The notes under the pieces are model-generated. The model had not been told where the DNA came from. It was given only the letters and a program-made list of their open reading frames with translations, and ran no database searches. A stretch of 64,000 bases of DNA from contig ONJF01000004.1 of the NCBI GenBank assembly GCA_900318085.1, positions 78,319 through 142,318 on the forward strand, in the 5' to 3' direction. A program made the translations under genes and the position numbers. Below, in pieces: positions 19,395 to 36,285 of this stretch. Each line of letters starts with the position of its first letter. Position 1 is the first letter of the stretch. The DNA comes from an uncultured Bacteroidales bacterium. GTDB lineage: Bacteria > Bacteroidota > Bacteroidia > Bacteroidales > F082.

Positions 19395-21140
19395 TCAAGG
19401 CCTCCGTTTCTTTTCTTCCCTCACCATTCTTTGAATATTACCAAAGTTATAATACTCGTACAAAGCCTTTATTGCTGTATTAGGGAATGACCTTCTTAAC
19501 AAATTCAAAGGCTCGTTTTCCGATTCATTCAGCTGCACATTGATGGAATCCACTTGCACTTCTTCCCATGACTCCGGCATTTCGATATTCAAAGGCACCC
19601 AATCAGATCCAACGCCAATTGGCCTATACATTAAATCATCTTCATGACCTATTATTGTAGCATCAAGGCACAACAGCTTGACATGTTTCAGCCCTTCAAT
19701 CTGCTCAAAGACATTGCCATTTTTTACATGAGCAACCCAACCGTCCCCAGTATTAAAGTACCAAGCATTATCCAAGGTGACATCATCAAAATGTTGCAAC
19801 AGATTACGCCGTTCTTCCTCGCTTATTTTTCCTTTTACCCTCAACTGCTCAATGTTTAAATCCCAAAACCATTCGGGGAAATACGGTTTTTCCCTAAAAT
19901 CGATCTCAAGTTTCCGAATGGGAATGGTATCAAATTGGCGCAAGGCAACAGGAAGATTCTGGACAAAAAGCAAAGAATAGCCTTCTTCATTTTCCATTTT
20001 CAGCCTTTGGAACTCGTTACCAACATCCTTCTTTCGCACCATCCAGCCCATCTTGGGGGTTAGCATATAATTCTCGTTGTTTTGTGCAAGTCCCACAAAA
20101 CCAGCCCACAACTCCACGAGTGTATCCTCTCCTGTCATCTCGTTGAATACTCTGACATCCACTTTAACCATCTCATCAGGCAAACGATCTATATCATCCA
20201 AATACAACGTATCCATCGGCAGTCTTTCTTCATAACGATTATATGGGTAAAACTTGGCCATCCAACCATTGAGGCATTCCGGACTGCCATACACATCCTT
20301 GGTATGTATCCGAAACATATTCATCCAGAAACTATTGTCAATTATACCTTTTGAAGAAGCAACAATCTGACTAAGAACAGGTTCAAGCTCATCAATCCAC
20401 CAGCCCAAGTCATAATCCCTCAATCGCATCGCTTTGTCATACACTCGCTGCCAGTCATCCGGCGTCCCCTCCAAAACGACATACGGTATGCCACAGCCCG
20501 CCATAGACACCGTGAACACAAAATAATCTTTTACCGCGCTCATAAGAGTGATTTCCGAAGCGATTCTTTCGACCTGTGTCGTGGTGGAGAAATCCGCTTT
20601 GATGATTTCTGCGATATCACCCTTGGTATTCTCCGCTATCTTTACCGAAAATGAATCAACGGCCTTTTCCCAGTCAATCTGCTCAATAGACGCCACATCG
20701 AACTCACATACCAACTCTTTTTTTTCTTTAAAATCAACTATGCGGTTGCGCAAAGCCTCGGCATTGGCATTCACATGATGCGAAAAGCCTTGGGCTATCA
20801 AAACCCAAATCATATCAGGCGACAAAGTCACTGGGCGATGGTTCCAATACGCTTCACGCATGCCTGAAATAAAAGAATGACTTCCAAATGTAACAAGGCT
20901 ATCTGCATCGACTTTTAACGCCAACAGGCCGTAATCCATACGAAAGTCATTTTCTTCTATGTCATACTTGGTCACTCCTGCATCTTCTTCAATAAAAGTC
21001 TTGAAAATCTCCTCGGGAGATTCAACGGGCAAAAAGGAGTCGGGCGCTGACAATTTCTCAATCTTAATGGTAACTTGGGCTCGCATAGGAAAAACGATCC
21101 CTAATAATACCAACAACACAAACGAAATTTGTTTTTTCAT
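19395..21140 (-). CDS. DUF4419 domain-containing exported protein
   Basis: 581 residues with a cleavable signal peptide (MKKQISFVLLVLLGIVFPMRAQ). The body matches the DUF4419 layout: an N-terminal region reaching GSHSFISGMREAYWNHRPVTL and DMIWVLIAQGFSHHVN, then a conserved GCGIPYVVLEGTPDDWQRVYDKAM block and NSFWMNMFRIHTKDVYGSPECLNGWM. No catalytic chemistry is established for the family. The C-terminal part (about 430-560) has tryptophan-rich stretches and no membrane anchor. Divergent from the C69 peptidase gene, with a minus-strand TATTTTTG at 21164-21157. Confidence 0.8.
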   Translation of the reverse strand: MKKQISFVLLVLLGIVFPMRAQVTIKIEKLSAPDSFLPVESPEEIFKTFIEEDAGVTKYDIEENDFRMDYGLLALKVDADSLVTFGSHSFISGMREAYWNHRPVTLSPDMIWVLIAQGFSHHVNANAEALRNRIVDFKEKKELVCEFDVASIEQIDWEKAVDSFSVKIAENTKGDIAEIIKADFSTTTQVERIASEITLMSAVKDYFVFTVSMAGCGIPYVVLEGTPDDWQRVYDKAMRLRDYDLGWWIDELEPVLSQIVASSKGIIDNSFWMNMFRIHTKDVYGSPECLNGWMAKFYPYNRYEERLPMDTLYLDDIDRLPDEMVKVDVRVFNEMTGEDTLVELWAGFVGLAQNNENYMLTPKMGWMVRKKDVGNEFQRLKMENEEGYSLLFVQNLPVALRQFDTIPIRKLEIDFREKPYFPEWFWDLNIEQLRVKGKISEEERRNLLQHFDDVTLDNAWYFNTGDGWVAHVKNGNVFEQIEGLKHVKLLCLDATIIGHEDDLMYRPIGVGSDWVPLNIEMPESWEEVQVDSINVQLNESENEPLNLLRRSFPNTAIKALYEYYNFGNIQRMVREEKKRRP

Positions 21141-21181
21141 CGGATTTATTTTTTTGCAAAAATAACAATTTCAAACGACTT

Positions 21182-21213
21182 TTTGTCATCAGGCCATAAA
21201 AATAGTATTTTTG
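21182..21213 (+). promoter_or_regulatory. Promoter for C69 peptidase
   Basis: TTTG (21182-21185), 20 bp, TATTTTTG (21206-21213), 19 bp before the ATG. Confidence 0.65.
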
Positions 21214-21232
21214 CCACAAAAGTGTTTCACCA

Positions 21233-22957
21233 ATGAAAAGTATCAAAACCCTTCTTATTATCGTCCTGCTTACCGCTTTTGGACAATCGCAGGCTTGCAC
21301 CAACTTCTTGATCACCAAAGGCGCCAGCGTCGACGGTTCCAACTTCATCAGCTACTGCGCCGACTCGCACATCCGATATGGCGAGCTCTACTTCACCCCT
21401 GCCGCCGACTGGCCGGCGGGCAGCATGCGCGTGTGCTACGACCGTGGCACCAACGCGCCGCGTGGCAGCGTTCCGCAACCGCCTCACACTTACCAAGTGG
21501 TGGGCTATATCAACGAGAACCAAGTGGCCCTCGGCGAGACCACCTTCGGTGGTCGCGAGGAGCTGATGGACCCGACGGGCATTGTGGATTACGGCAGCCT
21601 CATGTTCATCGCCTTGGAGCGCAGCACCTCTGCCCGCGAAGCCATCAAAATCATGGCCGACTTGGTGGAAGCCTACGGCTACGGCTCTGACGGTGAGTCG
21701 TTCAGCATCAGCGATGCCAACGAGGTTTGGTACATGGAAATCATGCCAAAGGGCTACACCCCACAGGTGACCAAGACTGGCGACACCATCAATGCCGACC
21801 GTGGTGCGGTGTGGGTGGCCATCCGCATCCCCGACGGTTATGTAAGCGGTCACGCCAATGCAGCGCGCATCACCACCTTCCCTTTGCGCAACGGCAAGAC
21901 CTCCATCACCGACAAGGACTGGAAAAAACTTTATAACGAGCAAGTTGAGGTAATTTACAAGCATGACATCATCGACTTTGCCCGTCGCAAGGGCTACTTC
22001 AGCGGCAAGGACAAGGACTTCGACTTCTCGGCCGCCTACGCTCCCGTCGATTTCAGTGCCGCCCGCGTGTGCGACCTGCGCGTGTGGACCATGTTCAACA
22101 AGGTCTGCGACGGCATGGACGCGTATTGGGACTATGTCACAGGAAAAGACCTCACCCACCGCATGCCGCTCTATGTCAAGCCCAACCGCAAGATCAGCCT
22201 ATCCGACATGATGGCCTTCCAGCGCGACCACTTCCAAGGCACTGAATTGGACAAAACCCAAGACGTGGGCGCAGGTCCCTTCGGCTCACCTTTCCGTTAC
22301 AACCCTTTGTATTGGGAATATGAAGGCAAGCCCTACCTCAACGAGCGCAGCATCGAAGTCGTTCAAACAGGATTTTCTTTCATCGCCCAAAGCCGTTCCT
22401 GGCTGCCTAATCCCATCGGTGGCATCATCTGGTTCGGCGTGGACGACACCAACTCCACCGTTTACACGCCCTTCTACTGCTCCATCAGCGAGGTGCCGAT
22501 TGAATACCGCGTGGGCAACGGCGACATGCTGACCTACAGCGAAAACGCCGCTTTCTGGGTCTTCAACCGCTTGGCGCACTTCAAATACCTCTTCTATAAC
22601 CGCGTCATCGGTGACATCCAAGCCGTGCAGAACGAGCTGGAAACTGGCTATCAGGAGCAGGTCAACTATGCCGACAACGAAGCCTTGGCCCTATACGCGC
22701 AAGACCCACAAAAAGCCATCGCCTACCTCACCGACTTCTCCAACCAAGCGGGTCACAACACCGTGTCCACATGGAAAGAGCTGGACAATTACCTTTTGGT
22801 GAAATACCTGGACAGCAATGTCAAGCAGGAAGAAAACGGTCAGTTCAAACGCAACGGCTATGGCTATCCCGCCAAGCCGAAGCAACCTGGCTATCCCGAT
22901 TCTTGGAAAAAGGCCGTGATCGAGCAGACGGGGGACCGTTTCAGAAGACCAAATTAA
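21233..22957 (+). CDS. C69-family dipeptidase (PepD-like), exported
   Basis: 574 residues. Signal peptide MKSIKTLLIIVLLTAFGQSQA is followed directly by CTNFLITKGASVDGSN, so signal cleavage would expose the Cys that is the N-terminal nucleophile of the C69/Ntn dipeptidases. Other family stretches: ENQVALGETTFGGREEL, AREAIKIMADLVEAYGY, GESFSISDANEVWYMEIM, and RGAVWVAIRIPDGYVSGHANAARI. Probably a periplasmic or surface peptidase cleaving dipeptides. The very C-terminus reads KKAVIEQTGDRFRRPN; a stray near-copy of that tail lies at 34024-34077. Monocistronic, with its own promoter. Confidence 0.9.
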   Translation: MKSIKTLLIIVLLTAFGQSQACTNFLITKGASVDGSNFISYCADSHIRYGELYFTPAADWPAGSMRVCYDRGTNAPRGSVPQPPHTYQVVGYINENQVALGETTFGGREELMDPTGIVDYGSLMFIALERSTSAREAIKIMADLVEAYGYGSDGESFSISDANEVWYMEIMPKGYTPQVTKTGDTINADRGAVWVAIRIPDGYVSGHANAARITTFPLRNGKTSITDKDWKKLYNEQVEVIYKHDIIDFARRKGYFSGKDKDFDFSAAYAPVDFSAARVCDLRVWTMFNKVCDGMDAYWDYVTGKDLTHRMPLYVKPNRKISLSDMMAFQRDHFQGTELDKTQDVGAGPFGSPFRYNPLYWEYEGKPYLNERSIEVVQTGFSFIAQSRSWLPNPIGGIIWFGVDDTNSTVYTPFYCSISEVPIEYRVGNGDMLTYSENAAFWVFNRLAHFKYLFYNRVIGDIQAVQNELETGYQEQVNYADNEALALYAQDPQKAIAYLTDFSNQAGHNTVSTWKELDNYLLVKYLDSNVKQEENGQFKRNGYGYPAKPKQPGYPDSWKKAVIEQTGDRFRRPN

Positions 22958-23044
22958 GTCCATATAACACAATTATTTAGGTATTATACAAAAAAACGCC
23001 TCGCCTTGAAACACATTAACGATTAATTACATATTTTTGCCGCG

Positions 23045-23207
23045 TTGTTTCCGAAGCGCTGAAAATTTCATGACATTTTCGGCAATTCGCCAACTATTTT
23101 CATACAAAAAAAGACATGTCCGGGGCGTCTCACCAGGGACATGTCAGAAAAAAAGGATCTAAAATGACCTGCCGAAAATGCAATTAAAAGGCAGGTTTTC
23201 TTTTTTA
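23045..23207 (+). ncRNA. Candidate small RNA with alternative structures
   Basis: A plus-strand promoter (TTG at 23006-23008, 23 bp, TATTTTTG at 23032-23039) is followed by about 160 nt with no coding frame. Hairpins: GAAAAT/ATTTTC (23061-23080), GACATGTCC/GGGACATGTC (23113-23145) and a terminator ACCTGCC/GGCAGGT (23167-23196) with a T-rich tail to 23207. CATTTTCGGCA (23074-23084) is exactly complementary to TGCCGAAAATG (23170-23180), which overlaps the terminator arm, so two folds exclude each other. It ends convergently on the HTH gene. Confidence 0.4.
23113..23145 (-). terminator. Terminator for module A operon
   Basis: On the minus strand the stem GACATGTCCC/GGACATGTC is followed by a T7 run (A run on the plus strand at 23106-23112), downstream of the HTH gene. 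Confidence 0.55.
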
Positions 23208-23450
23208 TAAATGATGATGGAAGATTACTTCGTTCAAAGTATCGAAGAATGTCATGCCGAAATGGGTCCCTATGTTGGCAAAAAGTACAGCATCCATATT
23301 GCTCTGCTTGAATACACACTCAAGTTCCGAAACTTCCATACCCGTCTTTTCCGCTAGCCACTCGATTGTGCAAACGCTACGTTCGAGCGACTCCTTCAAG
23401 AACTGTCCTGCATGAAAACAATAGATTTTATGATTTGCTTTTTCTTCCAT
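23205..23450 (-). CDS. Small HTH (XRE-like) protein
   Basis: 81 residues from MEEKANHKIYC (an ATG 15 codons upstream would overlap the preceding gene). Residues about 14-75 read as a short helix-turn-helix: LKESLERSVCTIEWLAEKTGMEVSELECVFKQ... followed by NIGTHFGMTFFDTL, the pattern of small Bacteroidales XRE-like proteins. It lies 41 bp downstream of the module A lipoprotein, on the same strand, so it may be cotranscribed and could regulate the array. No partner toxin seen. Confidence 0.6.
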   Translation of the reverse strand: MEEKANHKIYCFHAGQFLKESLERSVCTIEWLAEKTGMEVSELECVFKQSNMDAVLFANIGTHFGMTFFDTLNEVIFHHHL

Positions 23451-23491
23451 AGGACTTATTGTTTTTATCATTTCATAACAACCTAAACACA

Positions 23492-25792
23492 TCAATTCGC
23501 TTCCCTGATCAGGCGGACGGCATAGCCGGTACGCTTTACTGACGAATTTAGCAATTGCAATTCACTATAATCCCAATTGGCAATTAAGTTTAGACGTATG
23601 GCACTGGCTGTTTGGGGGCCAGTGGTCCAATAAAAACCATTCGCAGCTGTATAAACAGATGTTCCAGAACGAGAGTACGTGGCCGGTAAGATTACCGCGC
23701 CCTGCTGCTCAAGAAGCGACCATTGCGCTTCCGTCCATGCAATATTCCCATTGGAATTGTTGTAATTCGCACCTGCATCGAAGACTACCGGATAGCAGTT
23801 AAGATAGGTTGAGGGCCATGTGAAAGCATCAGGAAACAACAATAAAGCAATGAATTCCACATTATTCCTAACATTAATCCTAATACCAGCACAACGGGCA
23901 TTCGGCACTCCATTGACGGTAGAAGCAGAGCGCTCGAACATCAAATATCGATATTCACTTTCGTAAACATCCTGCCCATTAATTCTGCCCAGCCATTCTG
24001 CTCGAATGGTACGCCAACGCCCAGGAGTGTTGCCTCCATTACTTATGGCGTTGTATACGCCCCAGTCATATTTGGCGTAAGCGCCCTCCAAACTGGGATA
24101 GGATGTGCCCACCTTTGAGGGACCATAACCAAATGCATTAGGATGGGTTTGACTACCATTGGAATAATCTCTAGTGGAAGTAGACCATGGATTATAATAC
24201 AGGTTATACGTGTCGCAAGGGTCATGATAGCCGCTAGTAGCCCAGCCGAAGAGATCTATCCAACCAGCATAGTTTTCGTCGATTAGCTTGTTGTCGCATT
24301 TCATTCCCACATTACCGCTTGGAAACATTCCGCCTGTATATACCAAGCCTTTGTTACCATATCCCACTTGTTCGAACTGATATTCGGCAAAGCGCCATGT
24401 GCCGGCAGCCGTGCCGCCTCCGGCAACCGCATGCGTTGTTGGGGCGCTGCCGCCGCCAGTGGCGCTCCACTGTAAGTTACCCATCGAGAAGTATATCTGT
24501 TTGGTAGGTGAGACCGAGAAACGCGAAGGTATCATTCCACCATAGTCGTTGGCATAGTCCTTGCGAGTGGCAAAAGGAATAGGTTCGCCATAAAAAGCCG
24601 TCCCATCGCTGTTTGTAGCATAGGCACGCACCACATAAACACGATCTGGCAACAGGCCAGTCATGGCTTCAGTGTTAAAGTCGCGCCAACTGCTTGAAGA
24701 AGTGAAGTTATTGTCTATCTTTCCTACATTGTTATTGTCAACTATTAGGTTGGCCTTCGCATCTTCCATGAAGTCTTCATAACTAGTCCTTACCGACAAA
24801 TCATCGGCCAAGGCATACAAGATACCATACCCTGTTGCCGGTGCTCCACTCGCTGTGCCACCATTGTAGGCCGACGAATAGCTTATGAATGTAGGGCTTT
24901 TGGTGGTTACCTCAATCATTTCCAGTTTGTGGTCCACCTTCTTGATTACACTGCGAGGGATGAATCCATCGACAGGGTTGTCCGTCCAGTCGGAAGTCTC
25001 TTCATAGATTACCGTCGTTCCACTGTAGACGGTAATGGTGAAGCCGCTTTCAAGCGTACCGGGAGGCACCATGAAGTAGAAATCGGAAGTATTCACATTA
25101 ACAAATACTTTGTTACAATTGAGCGTAACGCTATTGCTGCCCCCGCTCACATGTGTCGGCATGGGATTCGTCGATGCGCAATCGGCGGTGAATACACCCC
25201 AAAGTTTGTCATTGGGGTCCAACGATGTCAACCTAATGCTGTCTATTGAAAACCCTCCTGTAAGCGGAATGCAGATGCCGCCAAACACATTGTAGAAATC
25301 CAGTCTTTGCCTGCTTGAGTTTGCCACCATTGGCATAGTGCCTTCACCAAACGACTTTTCCTTGAATATTTGGGTGGAGGGTATGTTGAAGGTGGCCGTC
25401 GTGCCGCTGATGGTGTTTGCAACACCCTTGGCGTTTGCCACAGGGTAGATGGCTACGTAGTCGGGCACGAAGAATCCGTCGTTCTGCTCACCTGTATAAA
25501 AGGTGCCGTTCGTCGTGTTTTCACCTTCGGTCAGCTGGAAGGTCAGCGTGCTGCCGTTGCCGCCTTGGTTCGCTACCTTGATGAGGTCGTTTTCGGTCCA
25601 AAACACGCTGGTTTCCGTTTGGGTGTTCCAATTTGGGTTGATATGGGTCCTCTCCCCTTTCCCATTGCCTTTGTCAGGTTGTACAATTGTAGCACGGAAG
25701 CCGTTTTCGGGCACCGTACCTTCCTTATTGCAAGAGGTCATTGAGCCCCAGAGTAGTCCGATTATGACTAGTCCATAAATTATTTTCTTCAT
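23492..25792 (-). CDS. Fimbrillin-like lipoprotein with FISUMP/C-lectin-like C-terminus (module A)
   Basis: 766 residues, intact. Start placed at MKKIIYGLVIIGLLWG (25792) because it gives a lipoprotein signal with lipobox SMTSCNKEG. Residues about 25-300 resemble the fimbrillin (FimA/Mfa-like) N-terminal domain: ERTHINPNWN, TFQLTEGENTTNGTFYTGE, FVPDYVAIYPVANA, LDFYNVFGGICIPLTGG, FYFMVPPGTLESGFTITVY. After a fibronectin-like linker (AYATNSDGTAFYGEPIPF), the C-terminal 350 residues run FSVSPTKQIYFSMGNLQW, GWIDLFGWATSGYHDP, YDWGVYNAISNGGNTPGRWR, AQWSLLEQQGAVILPA and finish GYAVRLIREAN, like FISUMP/C-type-lectin folds. Probably surface exposed. Third gene of module A, after a peptide and a membrane protein. 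Two sister copies are broken. Confidence 0.8.
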   Translation of the reverse strand: MKKIIYGLVIIGLLWGSMTSCNKEGTVPENGFRATIVQPDKGNGKGERTHINPNWNTQTETSVFWTENDLIKVANQGGNGSTLTFQLTEGENTTNGTFYTGEQNDGFFVPDYVAIYPVANAKGVANTISGTTATFNIPSTQIFKEKSFGEGTMPMVANSSRQRLDFYNVFGGICIPLTGGFSIDSIRLTSLDPNDKLWGVFTADCASTNPMPTHVSGGSNSVTLNCNKVFVNVNTSDFYFMVPPGTLESGFTITVYSGTTVIYEETSDWTDNPVDGFIPRSVIKKVDHKLEMIEVTTKSPTFISYSSAYNGGTASGAPATGYGILYALADDLSVRTSYEDFMEDAKANLIVDNNNVGKIDNNFTSSSSWRDFNTEAMTGLLPDRVYVVRAYATNSDGTAFYGEPIPFATRKDYANDYGGMIPSRFSVSPTKQIYFSMGNLQWSATGGGSAPTTHAVAGGGTAAGTWRFAEYQFEQVGYGNKGLVYTGGMFPSGNVGMKCDNKLIDENYAGWIDLFGWATSGYHDPCDTYNLYYNPWSTSTRDYSNGSQTHPNAFGYGPSKVGTSYPSLEGAYAKYDWGVYNAISNGGNTPGRWRTIRAEWLGRINGQDVYESEYRYLMFERSASTVNGVPNARCAGIRINVRNNVEFIALLLFPDAFTWPSTYLNCYPVVFDAGANYNNSNGNIAWTEAQWSLLEQQGAVILPATYSRSGTSVYTAANGFYWTTGPQTASAIRLNLIANWDYSELQLLNSSVKRTGYAVRLIREAN

Positions 25793-25861
25793 ATTATATT
25801 GATTTAAAAACTGTTTATACTTTTTACTATTATTACAAATCGACAATTACGACAACATATT

Positions 25862-26167
25862 TCATTCGATGGTATTCAAATCCATCAATTGCCTCATGTT
25901 CTCTTCAAGATCTTGAAGCATTTTGCTTCTAGGTGTTTCTTCTTGTTGGCTCTTTTCTTGCTGGTCATCAGAGTTCTCGCTTTCCCCAAGGTCTTCTTGT
26001 TGTTCTAAAGACATTGGAGTTTCAGTTCTGACAGTTATTTTCTCCACCCATTCGTGTTCATCACTGCCATCTTGGTGGTCCCGTCCAATGTAAGCCACCA
26101 ATCCAATAATGACAGCCAACAAGAAGAGCAAGGTTACTACTGGTCCTTCGATACCACCTCTTCTCAT
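25862..26167 (-). CDS. Small single-span membrane protein (module A)
   Basis: 101 residues from MRRGGIEGPVVTLLF (ATG at 26167; a TTG four codons upstream is possible). One membrane helix, VVTLLFLLAVIIGLVAYIG, then a Glu/Gln-rich soluble tail (EQQEDLGESENSDDQQEKS) ending MRQLMDLNTIE. Sister copies sit at 33176-33457 and 30528-30809; the helix is nearly invariant (LAVIIGLVAY) while the tail varies. It is 17 bp after the 50-residue peptide and 69 bp before the lipoprotein. Family not recognised; a chaperone or anchor for lipoprotein display is only a guess. Confidence 0.65.
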   Translation of the reverse strand: MRRGGIEGPVVTLLFLLAVIIGLVAYIGRDHQDGSDEHEWVEKITVRTETPMSLEQQEDLGESENSDDQQEKSQQEETPRSKMLQDLEENMRQLMDLNTIE

Positions 26168-26184
26168 GGAACACCACAAAATGA

Positions 26185-26337
26185 TTACGGGAAAATAAAA
26201 TAATCAAGCCCAACAGACTCTGTACTATTGCCTTGAATTCCAGATGAACAAAAAACTACTGGCGCGCTGATTTCAATAATTTGAGCCTTGGGAGCCTCAT
26301 AGGTTCGCCCCTTGGGGCAGTCTGCTACATTTTTCAT
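26185..26337 (-). CDS. Conserved 50-residue peptide (module A)
   Basis: A 50-codon frame, MKNVADCPKGRTYEAPKAQI... continuing IEISAPVVFCSSGIQG and ending GLDYFIFP. A sister copy at 33475-33627 differs at only three residues (C7R, R11Q, K16R) although its flanking DNA differs more, which supports coding. The pattern (a YxAP start, hydrophobic beta-like middle, Cys/Ser, short tail) resembles the tiny peptides that sit before fimbrillin-like genes in Bacteroidales, whose role is unknown. No signal peptide. Its stop is 17 bp before the membrane-protein ATG. Confidence 0.65.
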   Translation of the reverse strand: MKNVADCPKGRTYEAPKAQIIEISAPVVFCSSGIQGNSTESVGLDYFIFP

Positions 26338-26660
26338 CTTTCGATGTTGCTTTGTTTGTTATGCCCCTGTTCCCAAAGGGCTTCTTTTTGAAACGAGATG
26401 CGGGAACAAGCCGATACACGGCCACATCTCTTTTGTCGAAAACAAACAAAGAAGCGTGGATTGTATGTTCACACCTAACTTGAAGGTTGTAGCAGAGACC
26501 CGTAATAAAGGGTGTATAACAACCCACGCTATTGGGATGGGGCGTTACGTTATACAATCTCCTTTATTACGTGGCTCTTGAAAACTGCTACATTCTCAAG
26601 TTAAATGAAGCATAATCATGCTTCGATGATTGTATCTGGCGTCCTCTCGATTGCGAAATG
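26338..26660 (-). ncRNA. Structured leader RNA, copy A (two pseudoknots)
   Basis: The 5' UTR of module A. Nested helices pair 26477-26483 with 26596-26602 (AACTTGA/TCAAGTT), 26488-26495 with 26585-26592 (TGTAGCAG/CTGCTACA), 26501-26511 with 26561-26571 (CGTAATAAAGG/CCTTTATTACG) and 26514-26520 with 26549-26555 (GTATAAC/GTTATAC). The apical loop CCACGCT (26524-26530) pairs with AGCGTGG (26453-26459) outside the stem, making a pseudoknot. A second crossing set pairs 26369-26374 with 26402-26407 and 26395-26400 with 26425-26430. All recur in copy B, with a compensatory difference in the first pseudoknot. Not a family I recognise. Confidence 0.6.
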
Positions 26661-26666
26661 ACGGTG

Positions 26667-26701
26667 CAAAAATAGACAAATTTCTTGAAATAACAAGCAA
26701 A
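26667..26701 (-). promoter_or_regulatory. Promoter of module A
   Basis: Minus strand TTTG (26701-26698), 23 bp, TATTTTTG (26674-26667). Same arrangement precedes copy B. Confidence 0.65.
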
Positions 26702-26820
26702 TCCATGAAAAAAAACACCTCTGACTGCTTTTTGTCGCTTTTATGCGTCTTATTGCCCATGTTTTACATCATAACCTGCCAACCATTTTTGTATATTATG
26801 CCTAAAAGCCAACAAAAGAA

Positions 26821-26849
26821 GACCGCCACAAGAAAACCCTGTGGCGGTC
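26821..26849 (-). terminator. Terminator after MucBP-like lipoprotein
   Basis: GACCGCCACA (26821-26830) pairs perfectly with TGTGGCGGTC (26840-26849); on the minus strand a T-rich stretch follows. It separates the upstream operon from module A. Confidence 0.65.
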
Positions 26850-26891
26850 ACGTGAAAACCTATCGTATTTGCGCTGTATAACCCGTAACGG

Positions 26892-28301
26892 TTATTTTTC
26901 AACATCATAATCGTATAAGAATCTGACGAAACTACCTTCTTCTGACAACACGATACTTATGGATGGGCCTACTATTTCATATCCGGGAAAATCTGTATCT
27001 ATTGACCGATAATTATAACCATAAATATCTACGGCTCTTATTGTTATAGTTTCTCCAACATAGCCATATATCTCCGTTGGAGGGCCTAATTCTTCCCAAG
27101 TATTAATATCTAAGTAAGAAACATCAACCCGCACTTCCATTGGTTCTTTTTCATAATAGAAGATGAACTCATTCAAGTACGGATTCTCGGAAAGAACGAG
27201 GGTCATCTCACTGGGTGCCAAATACATGTAGCCAGGAACAACTACTGCACATTCCGTTATTTCAGAGCCAGCCTCGCAACCGGTAGCCACTTTTCCCGGA
27301 AAGAGCGGCTCTCCTGTATCAATATCCAAATATGAAACCGTATAGTACGTATAGTGGGCCATGGGGACCACCTCCATTGCAGTCTGCACCTTGCTCAATC
27401 GGCTGCGGACGATGAAGTCGGGCATTTGCCCGCTGTTCCATGCGACAGACATCTCGTAGATTGTCTCGTCTGTCAAGTTGAAATAAGATGGCCAAGACAC
27501 ATCGCCGACGACTTTCACCGTGAAGCCGTTCTCGAGCGTTCCGGCGGGCACCATGATGGTGAAGTCGATTACCGCGTCCCTGGAAAGCTCCACGCCATCA
27601 GGACCGCAGTCGAGGGTGATGATGTGCTTGTTGGGCGCGTTGTTGGCCACCGTGCTGTTGAGCGTGGCCTCGCCGTCGAGGCCGCTGATGGTGGTGGTGC
27701 AGCTGCCCCAAAGCACGTCGTTGGGGTTGTTGGAAGTGATCACCACACTTTTCACCTTATAGATGTGCCTATCGTCGTATTGCGAGCAGGTCAGCGGGAA
27801 CACCACGCCGCCCAGCACGTTCTTGAACTCAAGGTCTTCATCAGTCGAGCATGCCATCATAGGCATGGCCTTGGTGCCGAACGAGTTGGCCCTGTAGGTC
27901 TGGACAGCGGGCAGGTCGAAGGTGGCGGTTGTGGCCGAGGTGATGGTGTTGGCCGTTCCGGCGGTGCTGGTGGCGGGATAGATGGCTGTGTAGTTGGGGC
28001 TGAAGAAGCCAGCGCTCACCTCGCTCGAACGGAACGTGCCGTAGGAGGTGTTGGCGCCTTCGTCAAGGTCGAAGCCGAGGGCCTGGCCTTTGGTGTTGCG
28101 CACGACGATTTGGTCGTTTTCGTCCCATTTGACGGCTGAGCCGTCGAGGTAGGTCCTGCTGCCGTCGCCGCTGCCTTGCTCGGCTATGGCGTGGAAGCCG
28201 CGGCCGCTGGTTGTGCCGTTATCCTTGCCGCATGAGGAAAGGAAGCCGATTGCCACGAGGCATACTCCCACGAGGCGGAGGGTTTGTTTTCTGTTTCTCA
28301 T
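26892..28301 (-). CDS. Fimbrillin-like lipoprotein with two MucBP-like repeats
   Basis: 469 residues, lipobox in AIGFLSSCGKDNG. Residues about 30-300 follow the fimbrillin-like plan (SRTYLDGSAVKWDENDQIVV, FFSPNYTAIYPATS, LEFKNVLGGVVFPLTCSQ, FTIMVPAGTLENGFTVKV). In place of the lectin-like C-terminus of its neighbours it has two repeats, YYTVSYLDIDTGEPLFPGKV... and RVDVSYLDINTWEELGPPTE..., each ending in an aromatic strand, reminiscent of MucBP adhesin repeats. Its GC-richer N-terminus and AT-richer repeat region differ in composition, suggesting domain swap. No dedicated leader RNA; it lies 75 bp downstream of the middle lipoprotein and probably shares its transcript. Confidence 0.75.
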   Translation of the reverse strand: MRNRKQTLRLVGVCLVAIGFLSSCGKDNGTTSGRGFHAIAEQGSGDGSRTYLDGSAVKWDENDQIVVRNTKGQALGFDLDEGANTSYGTFRSSEVSAGFFSPNYTAIYPATSTAGTANTITSATTATFDLPAVQTYRANSFGTKAMPMMACSTDEDLEFKNVLGGVVFPLTCSQYDDRHIYKVKSVVITSNNPNDVLWGSCTTTISGLDGEATLNSTVANNAPNKHIITLDCGPDGVELSRDAVIDFTIMVPAGTLENGFTVKVVGDVSWPSYFNLTDETIYEMSVAWNSGQMPDFIVRSRLSKVQTAMEVVPMAHYTYYTVSYLDIDTGEPLFPGKVATGCEAGSEITECAVVVPGYMYLAPSEMTLVLSENPYLNEFIFYYEKEPMEVRVDVSYLDINTWEELGPPTEIYGYVGETITIRAVDIYGYNYRSIDTDFPGYEIVGPSISIVLSEEGSFVRFLYDYDVEK

Positions 28302-28376
28302 TTTTCTTGTAGTTTTGTTGTGTTTTGTCTTTTTTATTGCTGTACGCTTTATTGTTGCACGCTAACTAAAAGTACA

Positions 28377-30460
28377 TTACTCGGCTGGACAAACAAGTCG
28401 CACCGCAGTCCCATAATGTCGTGAATGTGATGTGTTAGGCCTAAGAATTGCTCTGTAGAAATACAAATAGTGGGCAAGATAACTATTATAATAATAGGTG
28501 GATGACCAGTAGCGTGCGTCAGAGTTCGTATTGCTGACATTAGTACTACCATCACGCCAGCCAGAACACGACAGGAAGATAGCACCTGCTTGCTCTAGCA
28601 GAGACCACTGGGCCTCCGTGAGTTTGCTATTTTCCCAATAATCCGTAGTGTTATAGGGTGTGACAAAATCCAGATGGTCCGAAGGCCAAGAGAAATCATC
28701 AGGATAAATAATAAGTCCATTAACACCAGTCCCACATGCAAGAACGCCATTCACTGTACTAACTTGGTTGTTGCTTGTGCCTCTAACAACCAATGCCGCC
28801 CTTGAATACCTATAAGTGCAGGTCCTATTGTTTAAAAGGTAGGCCCATTCGGATGAATTACCGCCTCTCGGAGTGCGCCATTGGATGCGGCCAGAAACGT
28901 TGCCGTCTTGGTTGCCGCCATTCAAAATGGCATTATAGCCCCAGTCAGCCTTACCTGAATTGCTGTACAGCTGGGTATAACTTGAGCCATAAGGATTATA
29001 ATGATTAGCATCCCGGCTTGTCGACCAAGGCTGCCAACATGTGGCAATGGGCGCATAGTCGTTGATACCGCTAGTGCCCCAACCGAACAGGTCAATCCAA
29101 CCAGCGTAATCTTCGGCAATAAAATAGTTGTTGCATCTCGTTCCTCCTTCATACACAAAGCCGTAATCATAATTGCCAACAAAATCAAACTGGCAGTCGG
29201 CAAAACGCCATGTGTTCGTCGAAGCTTGGTATTGCAGGTTACCCATCGAAAAGCGCACTTGTGTACCATCACCACGAACCGTGAAAACACTTCTGCTCCT
29301 GCCATTATTGGAATTGCTATAATAGTCGAAACGGGTGGCAAAGGGAATTGGAGTTCCATAAAACACCGTTCCAGCCTCGTTGGCAGCCCATGCGCGGACG
29401 AAATAGACTTCGTCTTCCTCTAGGCCGACAAGGTCAGCATCAAAACGTTTGGTTGACAGTATGTTGTTTGAGACGCAATTGGTCACATTGGCGCCGCCAA
29501 TGACGAGGTCGTCGGCAGGTGTGGCAAGATTGCTGGCCTTGGCATAAAGAATGCCGTATGAAACAGGAGTATTGTCAACCAAACCAAGGCCCAAGGCCGA
29601 GTTTTTGGTGATGAAAGTCGGACTTATCGTGGTCACCACCAGTGGCGTCACCACGATCTGAAGACTTTGATTAACTTTCATGACCACGCTGCGCGGGATG
29701 AAACCGCTGCCTGGGGAAGAGCTTGTCGACTTCTCATAGATCTTGTTGTTACCATTGTAGGCCTCCACCTTGAATCCACTTTCCAACGTCCCCGGGGGCA
29801 CCATGAAATAGAAGTCGGTCGGGACGGTGGCATCCAGGGCGACGCCTCCGCTGCACTCGAGCGTCAAGGTGTTGTCGCCTCCGCTCACATGCGCGGGCAC
29901 TGGATTGGAAGAGGTGCAGTCGGCAGTGAACACGCCCCATAGCTTCCGTTGCGAAAATCGAGTGTCTGCGTACTCGAGCTCGCCACCATGGGCATGGCGC
30001 CTTCGTCGAAGGTGTTGGCCTTGAACGACTGTGTGGAGAGCATGCTGAACGTGGCAGTGCTGCCGCTGATGGGGGTTGCAGTACCTTCGGCATTGGCCGC
30101 GGGATAGGCTGCCATGTAGTCGGGTTCGAAGAAGCCCTCGTTCGGGTCACCTGTATAGAAGGTGCCGTACATGGTGTTCTCGCCCTCCGTGAGTTGGAAG
30201 GTCAGCGTGCTTCCGTTGCCGCCTTGGTTGGCCACCTTGATATGGTCGCATGCCGACCAGTAAACGCCTGTCCCGTTTTCATTGCCCCATTCGGGGTTGA
30301 TGTGGGTCCTCTCCCCTTTCGATCCGCCGCCTTTCGTCTGCTCGATTTTGGCGCGGAAGCCGTTCTCGGGCACATCGTCGCCCGTGTTGCCGTTCTTCTT
30401 GCACGAGGCAACCAAGGCCAGGCACAAAATCCATAGGGCTATTCTACTTGTTTTCATCAT
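28377..30460 (-). pseudogene. Fimbrillin/FISUMP-like lipoprotein, disrupted (middle module)
   Basis: N-terminal part from MMKTSRIALWILCLALVAS with lipobox ASCKKNG reads through ...STQTLDFRN, then at about 29945-29950 jumps out of frame into KLWGVFTADC. In the intact module A protein about 27 residues (NVFGGICIPLTGG...LDPND) lie between those points, so the locus has a frameshifting deletion. The downstream part is open to the stop at 28377 and has the lectin-like end: YWSSTYYYNSYLAHYLYFYR ... GTAVRLVCPAE. As it stands the two halves could be made only separately. The last 100 bp before the junction are identical to module B, so a misassembly across a repeat is a serious alternative. Confidence 0.7.
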
Positions 30461-30527
30461 TCTTTGTAGTTGTGTTTGTTTTCTTTTTGCCTTTACTATT
30501 CTATTGTCTGCAAATCCAAGACCCGTG

Positions 30528-30809
30528 TCAAATGATGTTCGTACTCTTTTTTCCATTGTCTCTCGGGGTTTCTTCTTGGCTTTCAATGTTTTCAGAACTT
30601 TCAAAAACCACCTTCGTTTCCGTACTATCTGCTACCATCGTTGCAGTCTCTTCCCATTCAGGCACACCATAATCATCCTCAAGATTGTCTCGTCCAACAT
30701 AGGCGACCAATCCAATAATGACAGCCAACAGACACGAGACAACGGGACTATTGTTTGTGACTATGACAATGACCACCTCAACCCAACGCAGAAACTTTAG
30801 CATGTCCAT
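30528..30809 (-). pseudogene. Small membrane protein, middle module (C-terminal frameshift)
   Basis: Copy of the small single-span protein: VVSCLLAVIIGLVAYVGRDN is followed by the tail seen in copy B. Compared with copy B one T is missing (CCATTGTC against CCATTTGTC, near 30556), so the end becomes DNGKKSTNII in place of about 20 native residues. The N-terminus (MDMLKFLRWVEVVIVIV) is unrelated to the other copies and starts next to a dispersed repeat (30816-30870). No 50-residue peptide or leader RNA precedes it. Confidence 0.55.
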
Positions 30810-30815
30810 GAAAGC

Positions 30816-30870
30816 TGTCATGGTCAATGGCCAGGTCAAATAGTCTCAAAGTCCCGTGTCACGCGTCAAA
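30816..30870. repeat. Partial copy of dispersed palindromic element
   Basis: Shares GTCATGGTCA, GGTCAAATA and TCTC stretches and the end CGCGTCAA with the element at 50157-50277, plus AAAGTCCCGTGTC as found, inverted, at its other end. It sits where the leader RNA and peptide of a full module would be. Confidence 0.5.
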
Positions 30871-30948
30871 AACCATAAAGTCAAAAAACCATAAAAACTT
30901 AAATATGAGATGTTATTGGCATACTCTACCTTTCCAATCTTACCGGCA

Positions 30949-33142
30949 TCAATTCGCATCGCGCACAAGGCGGACGGGGAAGCCAGTACAACGCATATAC
31001 CCCCCGATCCAAGGTTCAATCTTCCGTTGGCCAAAACGCATGAGTCGTACACTGGCTGAATTGTGGACTGCTGTTGATGAATAAAAGGTTCTATCATACT
31101 TAGAAGAGTTTGTATCCTCCCCAAAGATCACCTCTTTTACTTCACGCCTACCAGTAGCCGGCAGGAAAACGCAACCCGCCCGCTCCAAAACAGACCACTC
31201 CGCTTCAGATAATGGTCTATATGAAAGGTTACTAGTAATGTTGTTTATATAGCTTAACGTACGTATTCCTTCTTCAGGGAGAGTAAACGAGTCGGGGAAT
31301 ATGACCAAGCCATTGACTGTATTGCCGCAAAACCAATGATCGTATCCGTCATAATTGATTTTTGTAACCGATTGGTTCACATTGCCATTCACATACAATT
31401 TAGCTCTCCAGACACGATAGTTTGGGCGATTCGGGGTTACGGGTTGAATCAGGTAAGCCCATTCCGTAATCTCGGAAGTACCATAATTGTTAGGTTGAGA
31501 GTACTGATTCAGCAAAGCACGCCATTGTCCAGGGGCATTGCCGCCGTTGCTGATGGCGTTGTAGACCCCCCAGTCGTAATTTGCATACTCGCCAATTAAG
31601 TCGTAATTAGTATAATTTTGAAAGCCATGTTTTACTGAAGAAGGACCGTAGCCGTATTCATTAACATCATTTTCAATTCTATCGTTTTCCCAAGAGTAGG
31701 GATAATAGCGTCTGACATGAGGATCATTAAGGTCGCGATAACCACTTGTTGCCCATCCGAAAAGGTCGATCCATCCGCCATAGCTTGACGAAATCAAGGC
31801 ATTGTCGCACTTCACACCGTTTTCATAGACGGTTCCCTTTTCTGCATCGCCCACAAAGTCCCATTGGTGTTCGGCGAAGCGCCACGTGCCTGGCGCGGTG
31901 GTGCCGTCGGCCCTGTTGTGGCTGCCCATGGCGGCATTGAATTGCAGGTTGCCTGCCGAGAACCATACCTTTCTGGTGGGCGACACGGAATATTCATAAG
32001 GGTTGCCACTCGGGTCAACCAATACGCCGGGATACGGACCTTCGAAATAGTCCATAAGCGTGGTGAAGAGGACGGGAGCGCCGTAATAGGGTATGCCCGC
32101 CGAGTTGGTGGCGAAGGCGCAAACATAATACTTGGTGTCTTCGTCGAGGCCTTCATACAGATTGCCATAGCATACGGTGCCTTGCACCACGTCGGTGGTC
32201 ACGAGCACGTTGGTGTTGGCGCTATTTAAGACGAGATCGGCGGCCGGGTTGCTCGGGTCAGTGATTTTGTCGTATCTAATAAAGAGCAGGCCTCGGGTGG
32301 TCGGTGTACCGGACGTCACTTGACCCAGTCCAAAGGCACTGTTCTTGGTGATGGACGTCGGGTTGACAGTGCGAACCTCCAGCGGCTCGACGACAATTTG
32401 CAGGCTGGTGTTCACTTTCATGACCACGCTGCGCGGGATGAAACCTGTAACAGGCGTTGCCGTCCAATTCGCAGTCTCATTGTAAATCATTGCAGTGCCA
32501 TTGTAGGCCGTCACGGTGAATCCGCTCTCCAACGTCCCCGGGGGCACCATGAAATAGAAATCAGTTGGAGTGGTGGCGTTGAGTGCGACACCCCCGCTGC
32601 ACTCGAGCGTCAAGGTGTTGTCGCCTCCGCTCACATGCGCGGGCACTGGATTGGAAGAGGTGCAGTCGGCAGTGAACACGCCCCATAGCTTCGTCGAAGG
32701 TGTTGGCCTTGTACGACTGCGTAGAGAGCATGCTGAACGTGGCAGTGCTGCCGCTGATGGTGGTTGCAGTGCCTTCTGCGTTGGCCGCGGGATAGGCTGC
32801 CATGTAGTCGGGCTCGAAAAAGCCGTCGTTCTGCTCGCCCGTGTAGAAGGTCCCATACATGGTGTTCTCGCCCTCCGTGAGTTGGAAGGTCAGCGTGTTG
32901 CCGCTTTGGTTAGACACCTTGATATGGTCGCCTGCCGACCAGTAAATACCAGTCTCTTCTTCATTGCCCCAGTCGGGGTTGATGTGGGTCCTCTCCCCTT
33001 TCGAACCGCCACCTTTCGTCTGCTCGATGGTGGCGCGGAATCCGTTTTCAGGTACGTCGTTGCCCGTGTTGCCGTTCTTCTTGCACGAGGCAACCAAGGC
33101 CAGACACAAGATCCATAGTGCTATTCTACTTGTTTTCATCAT
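30949..33142 (-). pseudogene. Fimbrillin/FISUMP-like lipoprotein, disrupted (module B)
   Basis: Starts MMKTSRIALWILCLALVAS with the same lipoprotein signal as the middle copy and reads the fimbrillin-like N-terminus to QSYKANTFDE, then at about 32690-32693 goes out of frame into KLWGVFTADC. About 45 residues present in module A are absent. The second half continues in frame to 30949 with WIDLFGWATSGYRDL, YDWGVYNAISNGGNAPGQWR, AEWSVLERAGCVFLPATG and GFPVRLVRDAN. The right-hand breakpoint (AAGCTATGGGGCGTG) is identical to the one in the middle copy, the left-hand one differs. Either a recombination hot spot or a repeat-collapse assembly artefact. Confidence 0.7.
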
Positions 33143-33175
33143 TTTTGTTTTTTGTTTGTTTTATTCTTGCCTTTA

Positions 33176-33457
33176 CTATTCTATTGTCTGCAAATCCAAG
33201 ACCCGTGTCAAATGTTGTTCGTACTCTTTTTTCCATTTGTCTCTCGGGGTTTCTTCTTGGCTTTCAATGTTTTCAGGACTTTCAAAAATCACCTTCGCTT
33301 CCGTACTATCTGCTACAATCGTTGCAGTCTCTTCCCATTCAGGCACATCATAATCATCCTCAAGATTGTCTCGTCCAACATAGGCAACCAATCCAATAAT
33401 GACAGCCAAAATGAAGAGCGAGGTTACTACTGGTCCTCCAACACCTTCTCTTCTCAT
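33176..33457 (-). CDS. Small single-span membrane protein (module B)
   Basis: 93 residues from MRREGVGGPVVTSLF. One membrane helix (VVTSLFILAVIIGLVAYVG) and an acidic soluble tail EDDYDVPEWEETATIVADS ending RVLDLQTIE. Orthologous in position to the module A protein: 17 bp after the 50-residue peptide and 33 bp before the lipoprotein start. Conserved helix and variable tail suggest the helix makes the shared contact. Family not recognised. Confidence 0.65.
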   Translation of the reverse strand: MRREGVGGPVVTSLFILAVIIGLVAYVGRDNLEDDYDVPEWEETATIVADSTEAKVIFESPENIESQEETPRDKWKKEYEQHLTRVLDLQTIE

Positions 33458-33474
33458 GGAACACCACAAAATGA

Positions 33475-33627
33475 TTACGGGAAAATAAAATAATCAAGCC
33501 CAACAGACTCTGTACTATTGCCTTGAATTCCTGAAGAACAAAAAACTACTGGCGCGCTGATTTCAATAATTTGGGCCCTGGGAGCCTCATAGGTTTGCCC
33601 CTTGGGGCGGTCTGCTACATTTTTCAT
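33475..33627 (-). CDS. Conserved 50-residue peptide (module B)
   Basis: MKNVADRPKGQTYEAPRAQI then IEISAPVVFCSSGIQG and GLDYFIFP, 50 residues, three substitutions from the module A copy. A longer upstream frame exists (ATG at 33753) but the upstream part is not conserved in frame in copy A and overlaps the second pseudoknot, so the ATG at 33627 is preferred. Function unknown. Confidence 0.65.
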   Translation of the reverse strand: MKNVADRPKGQTYEAPRAQIIEISAPVVFCSSGIQGNSTESVGLDYFIFP

Positions 33628-33958
33628 CCTACGATGTCTTCTTTTTAGTTGTCGTCCTGCCTCCGTTCCCAAAAGGCAAACATTACCAAAACATTGAGAT
33701 ACAGGAACGAGCCTAACATAGCCGCATCTCTTCCTTTTGTCGAAAACAAACAAAGAAGCGTGAGAGCAAGCTCACATCTAACTTGAAGGCTGTAGCAGAG
33801 GCCCGTAATAAAGGATGTATAACTAACTACTCACGCTATTGGGTGGGCGTCGTTATACAATCTCCTTTATTACCTGGCTGAAAACTGCTACATTCTCAAG
33901 TTAATCGAAGCAACCCTTGCTTCCTAGATTGTAATCTAGCGTCCTCTCGATGGCGAAA
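33628..33958 (-). ncRNA. Structured leader RNA, copy B (two pseudoknots)
   Basis: Sister of the leader at 26338-26660. Helices: 33780-33786/33896-33902, 33791-33798/33885-33892, 33805-33814/33864-33873 and 33817-33823/33852-33858. The loop CTCACGCT (33830-33837) pairs with AGCGTGAG (33757-33764); copy A has CCACGCT with AGCGTGG, so the two sides changed together. Second crossing set: 33664-33669 with 33704-33709 and 33696-33700 with 33726-33730. A 5'-proximal hairpin GAAGCAAGGGTTGCTTC also recurs, with changed loop, in copy A. Confidence 0.6.
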
Positions 33959-33966
33959 TGACGGGG

Positions 33967-34000
33967 CAAAAATAGACAAAAAATTGTTTTAGCAAGCAAA
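33967..34000 (-). promoter_or_regulatory. Promoter of module B
   Basis: Minus strand TTTG (34000-33997), 22 bp, TATTTTTG (33974-33967), as for copy A. Confidence 0.65.
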
Positions 34001-34023
34001 AACAAGAAAAAAAACGTTTTTCA

Positions 34024-34077
34024 TTGAAAAAAGCCATGATTGAGGAATCGGGTGATCGTTTCAGAAGACCTGAATGA
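34024..34077 (+). pseudogene. Stranded C-terminal tail of a C69 peptidase
   Basis: Reads LKKAMIEESGDRFRRPE then stop; the intact C69 peptidase at 21233-22957 ends KKAVIEQTGDRFRRPN. Only this 17-codon tail remains, 24 bp from the module B promoter, so a rearrangement has joined the array to the end of a second C69 gene. Confidence 0.7.
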
Positions 34078-34089
34078 TTGTTTGAATTT

Positions 34090-34170
34090 ATGTTTGTAGG
34101 GCTGCCAAACCATGGCAGCCGCTTGGGGAATTACCCTGCGGCTGCCACGATGTGACAGCCCTACAAACAT
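34090..34170. repeat. 80-bp hairpin element (MITE/REP-like)
   Basis: ATGTTTGTAGGGCTGCCA at the left mirrors CAGCCCTACAAACAT at the right; inside GGCAGCCGC pairs with GCGGCTGCC. The whole 81 bp folds on itself. No coding capacity. Confidence 0.65.
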
Positions 34171-34196
34171 TTTGATTTTCTACTATTTTTATAGGA

Positions 34197-34940: not shown

Positions 34941-34993
34941 AACTAACTATTTAGGTTTAGGATTATACTTCAAATTCTTTTTATTCCGGATTG

Positions 34994-36226: not shown

Positions 36227-36253
36227 TTTGAATGCATTTTCGTTTTTATGCTG

Positions 36254-36285
36254 CAAAGATAAGACAAGAACGCTTTTTGTACAAA
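36254..36285 (-). promoter_or_regulatory. Promoter for FG-GAP lipoprotein pair
   Basis: Minus strand TTTG (36285-36282), 20 bp, TATCTTTG (36261-36254), 28 bp before the ATG. Confidence 0.65.

What the first reader, a model, noticed from the sequence alone, without database searches (positions are those of the whole stretch)
26440..26701. Unrecognised structured leader RNA with a compensatory pseudoknot (copy A against copy B)
Seen: four nested helices of 7-11 bp (outermost 26477-26483/26596-26602) closed by a loop whose CCACGCT (26524-26530) is complementary to AGCGTGG (26453-26459) outside the stem. In the sister leader at 33745-33958 the loop is CTCACGCT and the partner AGCGTGAG: both sides changed and pairing is kept. 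Both copies follow the same promoter and precede the same gene set. Inference: a selected RNA fold, perhaps a riboswitch-like or translation-control element, or a processed small RNA, tied to a surface-lipoprotein operon. I cannot match it to a known family.
Basis: partly seen in the sequence, partly recalled or inferred. Interest (0 to 1): 0.85.

Follow-up and report, generated by a model that had tools for sequence, protein, structure and literature searches.

The report
Unreported switch-like leader RNA of Bacteroidota
The hairpin seen twice in this window belongs to a widespread, apparently undescribed RNA family that usually sits between the promoter and the start codon of many different genes, often for secreted proteins, in the Bacteroidota, and whose paired bases show clear signs of being kept by selection.

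Summary
In detail: both leaders contain the four nested helices and the loop-to-tail pseudoknot, read on the minus strand. They are not private to one lipoprotein operon. Covariance models built here match 92 of 99 genomes of the genus, 124 of 393 of the order, 40 of 395 of the class, 32 of 296 of a phylum sample and 0 of 33 outside the phylum. The window's genome holds about nine copies. No Rfam 15 match overlaps the element in the window stretch or in 55 loci scanned. Base pairs covary far beyond controls, also on a structure-blind alignment. Two pseudoknots pass swap tests. A Bacteroidetes -7 box lies upstream in 87 of 97, and the chosen start codon lies 40-75 nt downstream in 89 of 118. 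Downstream genes are diverse; 78 of 118 look secreted against 87 of 369 background ORFs. Best reading: a cis-acting 5' leader whose tail can pair either with the 5' strand or with the apical loop, a two-state switch of unknown trigger.

The parts
26666..26701 (-). promoter of copy A (Bacteroidetes type, -7 box TATTTTTG at 26667-26674)
   Evidence: sequence; family-wide such a box is upstream in 87 of 97 loci
26640..26663 (-). hairpin near the 5' end of transcript A, just after the promoter
   Evidence: fold; similar 5' hairpins in many relatives seen by eye
26446..26624 (-). leader RNA element, copy A
   Evidence: R1 142.6 bits (A is one of the 6 rows of R1), R2 E 5.7e-21 (A is one of the rows of R2)
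26607..26624 (-). 5' local hairpin P1a (26618-26624 with 26607-26613), alternative to P1
   Evidence: counted
26477..26602 (-). helix P3 (26596-26602 with 26477-26483)
   Evidence: 9 of 9 counted family pairs have a change on both sides
26488..26592 (-). helix P4 (26585-26592 with 26488-26495)
   Evidence: 8 of 8 family pairs have a change on both sides, 7 of 8 on a structure-blind alignment
26502..26570 (-). helix P5 (26561-26570 with 26502-26511); its length and sequence vary in the family
26513..26558 (-). helix P6 (26548-26558 with 26513-26521)
   Evidence: family P6 is helix 5
26453..26530 (-). pseudoknot PK1: apical strand 26524-26530 with 3' tail 26453-26459
   Evidence: family counts; swap test
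26369..26407 (-). possible PK2 of copy A: GTTCCC 26402-26407 with GGGAAC 26369-26374 in a hairpin loop before the first ORF
   Evidence: PK2 is a family feature but is displaced here, so tentative
26185..26337 (-). first ORF after leader A, 50 aa
   Evidence: translation
25862..26179 (-). second ORF of operon A, small protein with a hydrophobic N-terminal stretch
   Evidence: no Pfam match above its cut-off
23492..25846 (-). third ORF of operon A, large lipoprotein-like protein
   Evidence: no Pfam match
33967..33974 (-). -7 box of the promoter of copy B
33750..33923 (-). leader RNA element, copy B
   Evidence: R1 98.2 bits (B was not used to build R1), R2 E 9.1e-17
33757..33837 (-). PK1 of copy B: 33830-33837 with 33757-33764
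33475..33627 (-). first ORF after leader B, 50 aa
   Evidence: translation

Best explanation
A cis-acting leader RNA of about 155-180 nt near the 5' end of the transcript that controls the gene behind it. Shown: a long covarying stem (P3/P4); a tail that is complementary to two other strands of the same RNA (the 5' strand, P1; the apical loop, PK1); and in most copies a second pairing, PK2, between the segment just 5' of the tail and a hairpin loop shortly before the start codon. Inferred: P1 and PK1 use the same tail bases and cannot form together, and PK1 also takes about two bases of PK2. The RNA therefore has two states: P1 plus apical hairpin plus PK2, or 5' hairpin plus PK1. Changing state would open or close the start-codon region, and where the tail is followed by 5-8 U it may decide whether transcription continues. 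The trigger (small molecule, protein, RNA or temperature) is unknown; a signal shared by many unrelated genes is most likely.
For: Covariation: 95.1% of cells paired and 494 double-change cells against 123.9 (sd 10.4) in shuffles; 94.2% and 464 against 117.0 (sd 8.9) with PK1 and the 5' hairpin in place of P1; 93.8% and 173 against 55.6 (sd 6.5) on a MAFFT alignment of 60 sequences made without structure; 91.2% and 503 against 163.4 (sd 10.7) on 56 rows found with R2. Own partners beat swapped partners: PK1 20.73 against 19.78 (sd 0.19), PK2 15.99 against 13.25 (sd 0.26), each 0 of 2000, 97 sequences. G-U cells 94 against A-C 10 on the transcribed strand, which points to RNA. Position: -7 box upstream in 87 of 97, against 14 of 97 on the other strand and 7.0 (sd 2.5) in single-base shuffles; an ORF of 80 aa or more starts 38-82 nt downstream in 90 of 137, against 4 of 137 on the upstream side and 0 in shuffles. 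Signal peptides by a home-made rule 78 of 118 against 87 of 369 background ORFs, p 1.5e-16. In own-genome copies L035 and L036 and, by eye, L243 the PK1 partners differ on both sides from the common form.
Against: No expression or probing data. Mutual exclusion is deduced from shared bases, not observed. P1 is weak in L036 (duplex -2.0 kcal/mol) and not visible by eye in L035, so a P1/PK1 switch cannot hold for all copies. PK2 is not found at its usual place in every copy; in the window's copies it is displaced, and some copies show only 3-5 bp. Longest U-run of 5 or more near the tail: 20 of 25 divergent copies but only 21 of 72 of the others; the window copies have 3, so termination is not general. 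No Pfam family recurs in more than 2 of 112 downstream proteins, so the genes do not name a ligand. Swap tests do not correct for phylogeny.
Confidence: 0.62

Rival explanations
1. A stand-alone small RNA with its own promoter and terminator, acting in trans; the gene downstream is a bystander or gets only read-through.
For: -7 box upstream; longest U-run of 5 or more in 20 of 25 divergent copies; in several genomes the next plausible ORF, TonB-receptor-like by eye, starts 224-578 nt away.
Against: The downstream start codon is at a short, narrow distance in most copies (89 of 118 at 40-75 nt); PK2 pairs the element with sequence beyond the would-be terminator; the downstream genes are enriched for secreted products; U-runs are weak in most of the other copies.
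Confidence: 0.18
2. A constitutive structural 5' UTR that protects mRNA or boosts translation, with no switching.
For: Position near the 5' end, strong structure, no common gene function.
Against: Three strands competing for one partner and two pseudoknots that pass swap tests are more than a stabiliser needs.
Confidence: 0.15
3. A palindromic mobile DNA element (MITE- or REP-like) that lands upstream of genes.
For: Multi-copy; near-palindromic (antisense matches of 25-51 bits at some of the same places); present on plasmids and on some viral contigs; shared between two genera with 98.2% identical surroundings.
Against: G-U far above A-C on one strand, narrow distances to promoter and start codon, covariation across the phylum sample. 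Target-site duplications were not tested.
Confidence: 0.03

Closest known systems
Dispersed second-messenger riboswitches (GEMM-I/II, c-di-GMP; recalled, not compared directly)
   Same: Many copies per genome, 5' UTR, diverse genes including secreted ones (recalled).
   Different: Different fold and lineage (recalled); no Rfam family at all was reported over the element in the loci scanned; ligand here unknown.
Translational pseudoknot riboswitches such as preQ1 (recalled; review PMC11625349 seen only as a search listing)
   Same: Control by a pseudoknot near the start codon is the proposed principle.
   Different: Those are far smaller (recalled); no model match.
Bacteroidales-1 (RF01693) and Flavo-1 (RF01705), Weinberg et al. 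2010 PMC2864571 (passages with its table read)
   Same: Structured RNAs of the same phylum; Bacteroidales-1 marked there as of uncertain cis role.
   Different: The table gives both an Rfam accession; neither was reported over the element in the scans. Their presence in the copy searched was not checked separately.
Palindromic candidates such as HMP2_4205, HMP2_1065 and HMP2_1032 of Fremin and Bhatt 2021, PMC8040213 (section 8 and passages read)
   Same: Near-palindromic candidate RNAs mostly or wholly of Bacteroidetes, 80-132 bp.
   Different: No sequences could be read here (supplements closed), so overlap with part of this element is neither shown nor excluded.
Structured 5' transcribed regions of Flavobacterium psychrophilum, PMC9723704 (section 19 and passages read)
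   Same: 64 structured 5' leaders, some without Rfam hit.
   Different: The genes named there as examples are other ones; the full list was not readable.

Membership tests
Any Rfam 15 family | a match over the element | tested here: not met
   window 20000-40000 to E 5 and 7, 20, 8 and 20 loci to E 10; no listed match overlaps an element. RF02914 (DUF805b) lies 68 nt past the element in L233.
RNA family defined here (models R1, R2) | covariance-model match on the transcribed strand | tested here: met
   A 5.7e-21 and B 9.1e-17 with R2, but both are rows of R2 and A is a row of R1; B was not in R1 and scores 98.2 bits, E 9.1e-18 there.
RNA family defined here (models R1, R2) | P3/P4 stem with the P3-P4 internal loop | tested here: met
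RNA family defined here (models R1, R2) | apical strand complementary to the 3' tail (PK1) | tested here: met
   for A and B; for the family
RNA family defined here (models R1, R2) | pre-tail segment complementary to a hairpin loop before the start codon (PK2) | tested here: inconclusive
   family-wide met; in A and B only a displaced GTTCC(C)/GGGAAC pairing
Riboswitch | direct ligand binding that changes expression | not testable with these tools
   needs probing and reporters
Intrinsic-terminator attenuator | stem followed by a U-run at the tail | tested here: inconclusive
   longest U-run 5 or more in 20 of 25 divergent copies and 21 of 72 of the others; window copies 3
GUCCY-hairpin (PMC2864571) | its published consensus | not tested
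   listed without an Rfam accession in that paper's table; consensus not readable here

The most novel reading that the evidence does not exclude
A phylum-wide class of signal-sensing leader RNA in Bacteroidota, working by strand exchange among the 5' strand, the apical loop and the tail, which places unrelated accessory genes (secreted proteins, restriction systems, plasmid genes and others) under one unrecognised cellular signal, as dispersed second-messenger riboswitches do elsewhere.
Probability: 0.3. Interest if true: 0.92.

Novelty: new variant of a known kind. Interest (0 to 1): 0.8.

Why it matters
Rather few regulatory RNAs are known in Bacteroidota (recalled), a dominant phylum of the gut. 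This one matches 92 of 99 genomes of the window's genus and about a third of a sample of the order (124 of 393), including named Bacteroides, Phocaeicola, Parabacteroides and Prevotella records, so it can be tested in tractable strains. If it senses a common signal it would expose a regulon that protein-based searches cannot see.

Tried and rejected
Rfam at permissive thresholds listed other matches (tRNAs and mostly chance hits), none over the element. BLAST with the window leader in phage records gave nothing; the Bacteroides xylanisolvens copy matched 7 plasmid and 3 phage records, of which the three plasmid stretches fetched were confirmed with R2; the other four plasmids and the three phage records were not confirmed, and one of them (H10) covers only 20% of the query. 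Of 7 viral contigs from pattern scans, three were confirmed (L217; L263 and L264). Of the 84 loci, 45 carry the element on the sense strand; the rest are chance pattern hits, many in other phyla.

A local hairpin flanking the P4 5' strand (HP-A) beats swapped partners (z 5.3, 0 of 2000), but relatedness may explain part; one flanking the P4 3' strand (HP-B) is conserved in sequence but does not covary (1829 of 2000 swaps as good) and is not claimed (95 sequences). Pairing of the P4 3' strand with the start-codon region ranks first of 87 for window copy A but is not a family feature (695 of 2000 swaps as good). The idea that downstream genes share a family failed: Pfam on 112 of the 118 non-redundant proteins (L042, L057, L144, L226, L235 and L240 left out as short, doubtful or of a kind already present) found no family in more than 2; PADLOC shows one member for each of the 25 families listed of 73, NCBIfam at most 2 for the 25 listed of 69.

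Limits. L220 (genome G177) is a false hit in a repetitive, coding-like stretch; the other G177 matches and those of G369 were not inspected, so order and class tallies may be slightly high. The match numbers per genome (up to 14) were not checked one by one and may include antisense matches at the same place. L144 and L180 are doubtful and were dropped but not. L113 (cut by the locus end) and two weak second matches (in L105 and L144) were not used. A6 contains two antisense rows, kept; A8 contains ten, kept. Alignments made with R1 and R2 are fitted to their structure; one search is the structure-blind control, on 60 of the sequences. The signal-peptide rule is my own hydrophobicity test, and its background ORFs (100 aa or more, longest non-overlapping) were picked by another rule than the downstream ORFs (40 aa or more). 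The 25 divergent copies are 21 from other orders and 4 of the order (L035, L036, L232, L240). The 33 genomes were those that chance pattern hits had brought in, not a random draw, and the tool warns that an empty answer alone shows little.

Full report
What is there. In both window copies the transcribed strand is taken as the minus strand. A Bacteroidetes-type promoter (-7 box 26667-26674; 33967-33974) is followed by a small hairpin, then the long element (26446-26624; 33750-33923), then a 50-aa ORF (start 26337; 33627), a small protein with a hydrophobic N-terminal stretch, and large lipoprotein-like genes. Copy A folds better than all 200 shuffles; the antisense strand folds almost as well, as expected of a near-palindrome.

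From two copies to a family. BLAST with copy A hit 15 of 100 related genomes, the own one included. Twelve of the 20 places listed cover only the promoter and 5' part, but five loci outside the window (L005 of the own genome, L016, L018, L019, L021) carry the whole element. Copy A and these five gave model R1. R1 finds 6 places in the own genome at E up to 1 and matches in 92 of 99 genomes of the genus (E up to 0.01), 124 of 393 of the order in 76 of 206 genera, and 40 of 395 of the class, 29 of these from other orders (both E up to 0.001). A second model, R2, from the 99 rows of A6, finds nine places in the own genome at E 1.1e-5 or better and one doubtful at 0.16, 32 of 296 genomes in a phylum sample, five of them from other classes, and 0 of 33 genomes outside the phylum (these were genomes that chance pattern hits had brought in). 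L220 is a false hit in a coding-like repeat, so the order and class tallies may be slightly high.

Of the 84 loci searched (80 from that scan, 4), 45 carry the element on the sense strand, in Bacteroides xylanisolvens, B. stercorirosoris, B. bouchesdurhonensis, Phocaeicola coprophilus, P. sartorii, Parabacteroides faecis, Alistipes, Muribaculaceae and others, and in one IMG/VR contig (L217); the rest are chance pattern hits. Of the other 40 loci of that scan, 20 carry it. The window's genus is probably Candidatus Limimorpha, because the record so named (L130) and a same-genus genome (L051) show the same leader; this is an inference.

Is it known? Rfam 15 was scanned at permissive cut-offs over window 20000-40000 and over sets of 7, 20, 8 and 20 loci; no listed match overlaps the element. 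Seven paper searches listed no paper whose title or abstract start describes it; the lists were capped and the library holds open-licence papers only. Fremin and Bhatt 2021 (PMC8040213; section 8 and passages read) list palindromic Bacteroidetes candidates, and work on Flavobacterium psychrophilum (PMC9723704; section 19 and passages read) lists 64 structured leaders. Their sequences were not readable, so partial overlap is possible. A search inside PMC11109978 found no mention of Bacteroides, Bacteroidetes, Bacteroidota, Flavobacterium or Prevotella in its main text.

Evidence for RNA structure. On the 99 rows of A6, P1 with two further pairs, P3 and P4 have 95.1% of cells paired, 22 of 24 pairs with a change on both sides, and 494 double-change cells against 123.9 (sd 10.4); sliding the partners by one to three columns drops pairing to 36-49%. 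With PK1 and the 5' hairpin instead of P1 the figures are 94.2%, 23 of 28, and 464 against 117.0 (sd 8.9). On a MAFFT alignment of 60 sequences made without structure, 93.8%, 16 of 19, and 173 against 55.6 (sd 6.5). On the 56 rows of A8, ten of them antisense, 91.2%, 30 of 32, and 503 against 163.4 (sd 10.7). G-U cells outnumber A-C cells 94 to 10 on the transcribed strand.

Pseudoknots and competition. PK1 joins the apical strand (GCGTGG with one more G in most) to the tail (CCCACGC or CCACGC). In own-genome copies L035 and L036 and L243 (by eye) both sides have changed. PK2 joins the segment just 5' of the tail (for example CAGTTCC, TGTCCC, TATCCCC, AAGACCC) to a hairpin loop shortly before the start codon. 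Own partners beat swapped partners in both (0 of 2000 each, 97 sequences); in PK1 the gain is small because the strand is so conserved, and some copies show only 3-5 bp for PK2. The tail is also complementary to the 5' strand (P1), and the 5' strand to a local partner (P1a). P1 and PK1 use the same tail bases, so they exclude each other; the computed duplex and local-hairpin energies are of similar size in several members (rough). This is the basis of the two-state model. In L036 P1 is nearly gone while PK1 is strong, so PK1 appears the more essential.

Position and genes. A -7 box lies upstream on the same strand in 87 of 97, 79 of them 33-64 nt away, against 14 of 97 on the reverse strand and 7.0 (sd 2.5) in single-base shuffles. 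Among 137 of the 150 loci with enough sequence (near-duplicates not removed), an ORF of at least 80 aa starts 10-200 nt downstream in 116 (38 on the upstream side, 2 in shuffles) and 38-82 nt downstream in 90 (4 and 0). Of 150 loci, 139 gave a downstream ORF, 118 non-redundant, 89 of these starting 40-75 nt away. By my simple rule 78 of 118 have a signal peptide or lipobox, against 87 of 369 other ORFs of the same loci (p 1.5e-16). Twelve of 118 share a GIPVDG-type motif; ten or more of these look secreted by eye. Otherwise the genes are diverse: no Pfam family in more than 2 of 112. They include matches to a DNA methylase, a restriction endonuclease, an MBOAT protein and a nucleotidyltransferase of the kind named for lincosamide or aminoglycoside resistance, HTH-like proteins by eye, and an annotated beta-lactamase on plasmid pBUN1, whose start lies 45 nt past the element. 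In six genomes (five of genus g264, one of g362) the next plausible ORF, which looks like a TonB receptor by eye, starts 224-578 nt past the element (L247, L250, L251, L256, L259, L260).

Mechanism. I take it as a cis-acting leader with two exclusive states that governs access to the start codon (and, where U-runs are long, perhaps termination). Structure, position and pairings are shown; the switching, its output and its trigger are inferred. My confidence is about 0.97 that it is a real RNA family, 0.8 that it acts in cis, 0.6 that it switches.

Differences of the window copies. A and B have a stronger 5' hairpin, a longer apical region, a displaced PK2 and extra sequence before the first ORF; they are divergent members. 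In copy A the P4 3' strand also matches the ORF start over nine bases (rank 1 of 87), which may be chance or a local variation; it is not a family trait.

Noticed in passing
window 26185-26337 and 33475-33627, minus: A 50-aa ORF conserved between the two operons; a similar small ORF (with ...TYLPP...VLCAS...) follows the leader in L038 and L042.
   Followed up: partly
window 26317-26337 with 26488-26496: The start region of the first ORF repeats the P4 5' strand, so nine bases can pair with the P4 3' strand; not a family feature.
   Followed up: yes
window 28377-30604 and 30949-33142, minus: Two paralogues of the large lipoprotein gene each appear as two overlapping ORFs in different frames; described only.
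   Followed up: no
window 34089-34171: A long palindrome upstream of copy B (sub-threshold Rfam hit mir-74, E 0.13).
   Followed up: no
L265 3065-3281 (Bacteroides uniformis plasmid pBUN1): The leader RNA stands directly before the annotated beta-lactamase gene blaMUN-1; described only.
   Followed up: partly
L267 (Parabacteroides distasonis plasmid): The leader stands just before a gene annotated DUF4433.
   Followed up: no
L035, L036, L243 (own genome): A divergent subgroup with changed PK1 partners precedes a DNA methylase-like ORF, a restriction-enzyme-like ORF and a third large ORF not searched in any library.
   Followed up: partly
L114 469-2525 and L126 5944-8000: 98.2% identity over 2,057 bases between Phocaeicola coprophilus and Bacteroides xylanisolvens records, leader included; suggests recent transfer.
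   Followed up: partly
L233 1727-1759: RF02914 (DUF805b) hit at E 7.5e-6, just under its threshold, 68 nt after an element.
   Followed up: no
L247, L250, L251, L256, L259, L260: In genus g264 and one g362 genome the element recurs 224-578 nt before ORFs that look like TonB receptors by eye.
   Followed up: partly
L255, L258: In two other genomes the next ORF looks like a sigma factor (L255) or an anti-sigma factor (L258) by eye.
   Followed up: no
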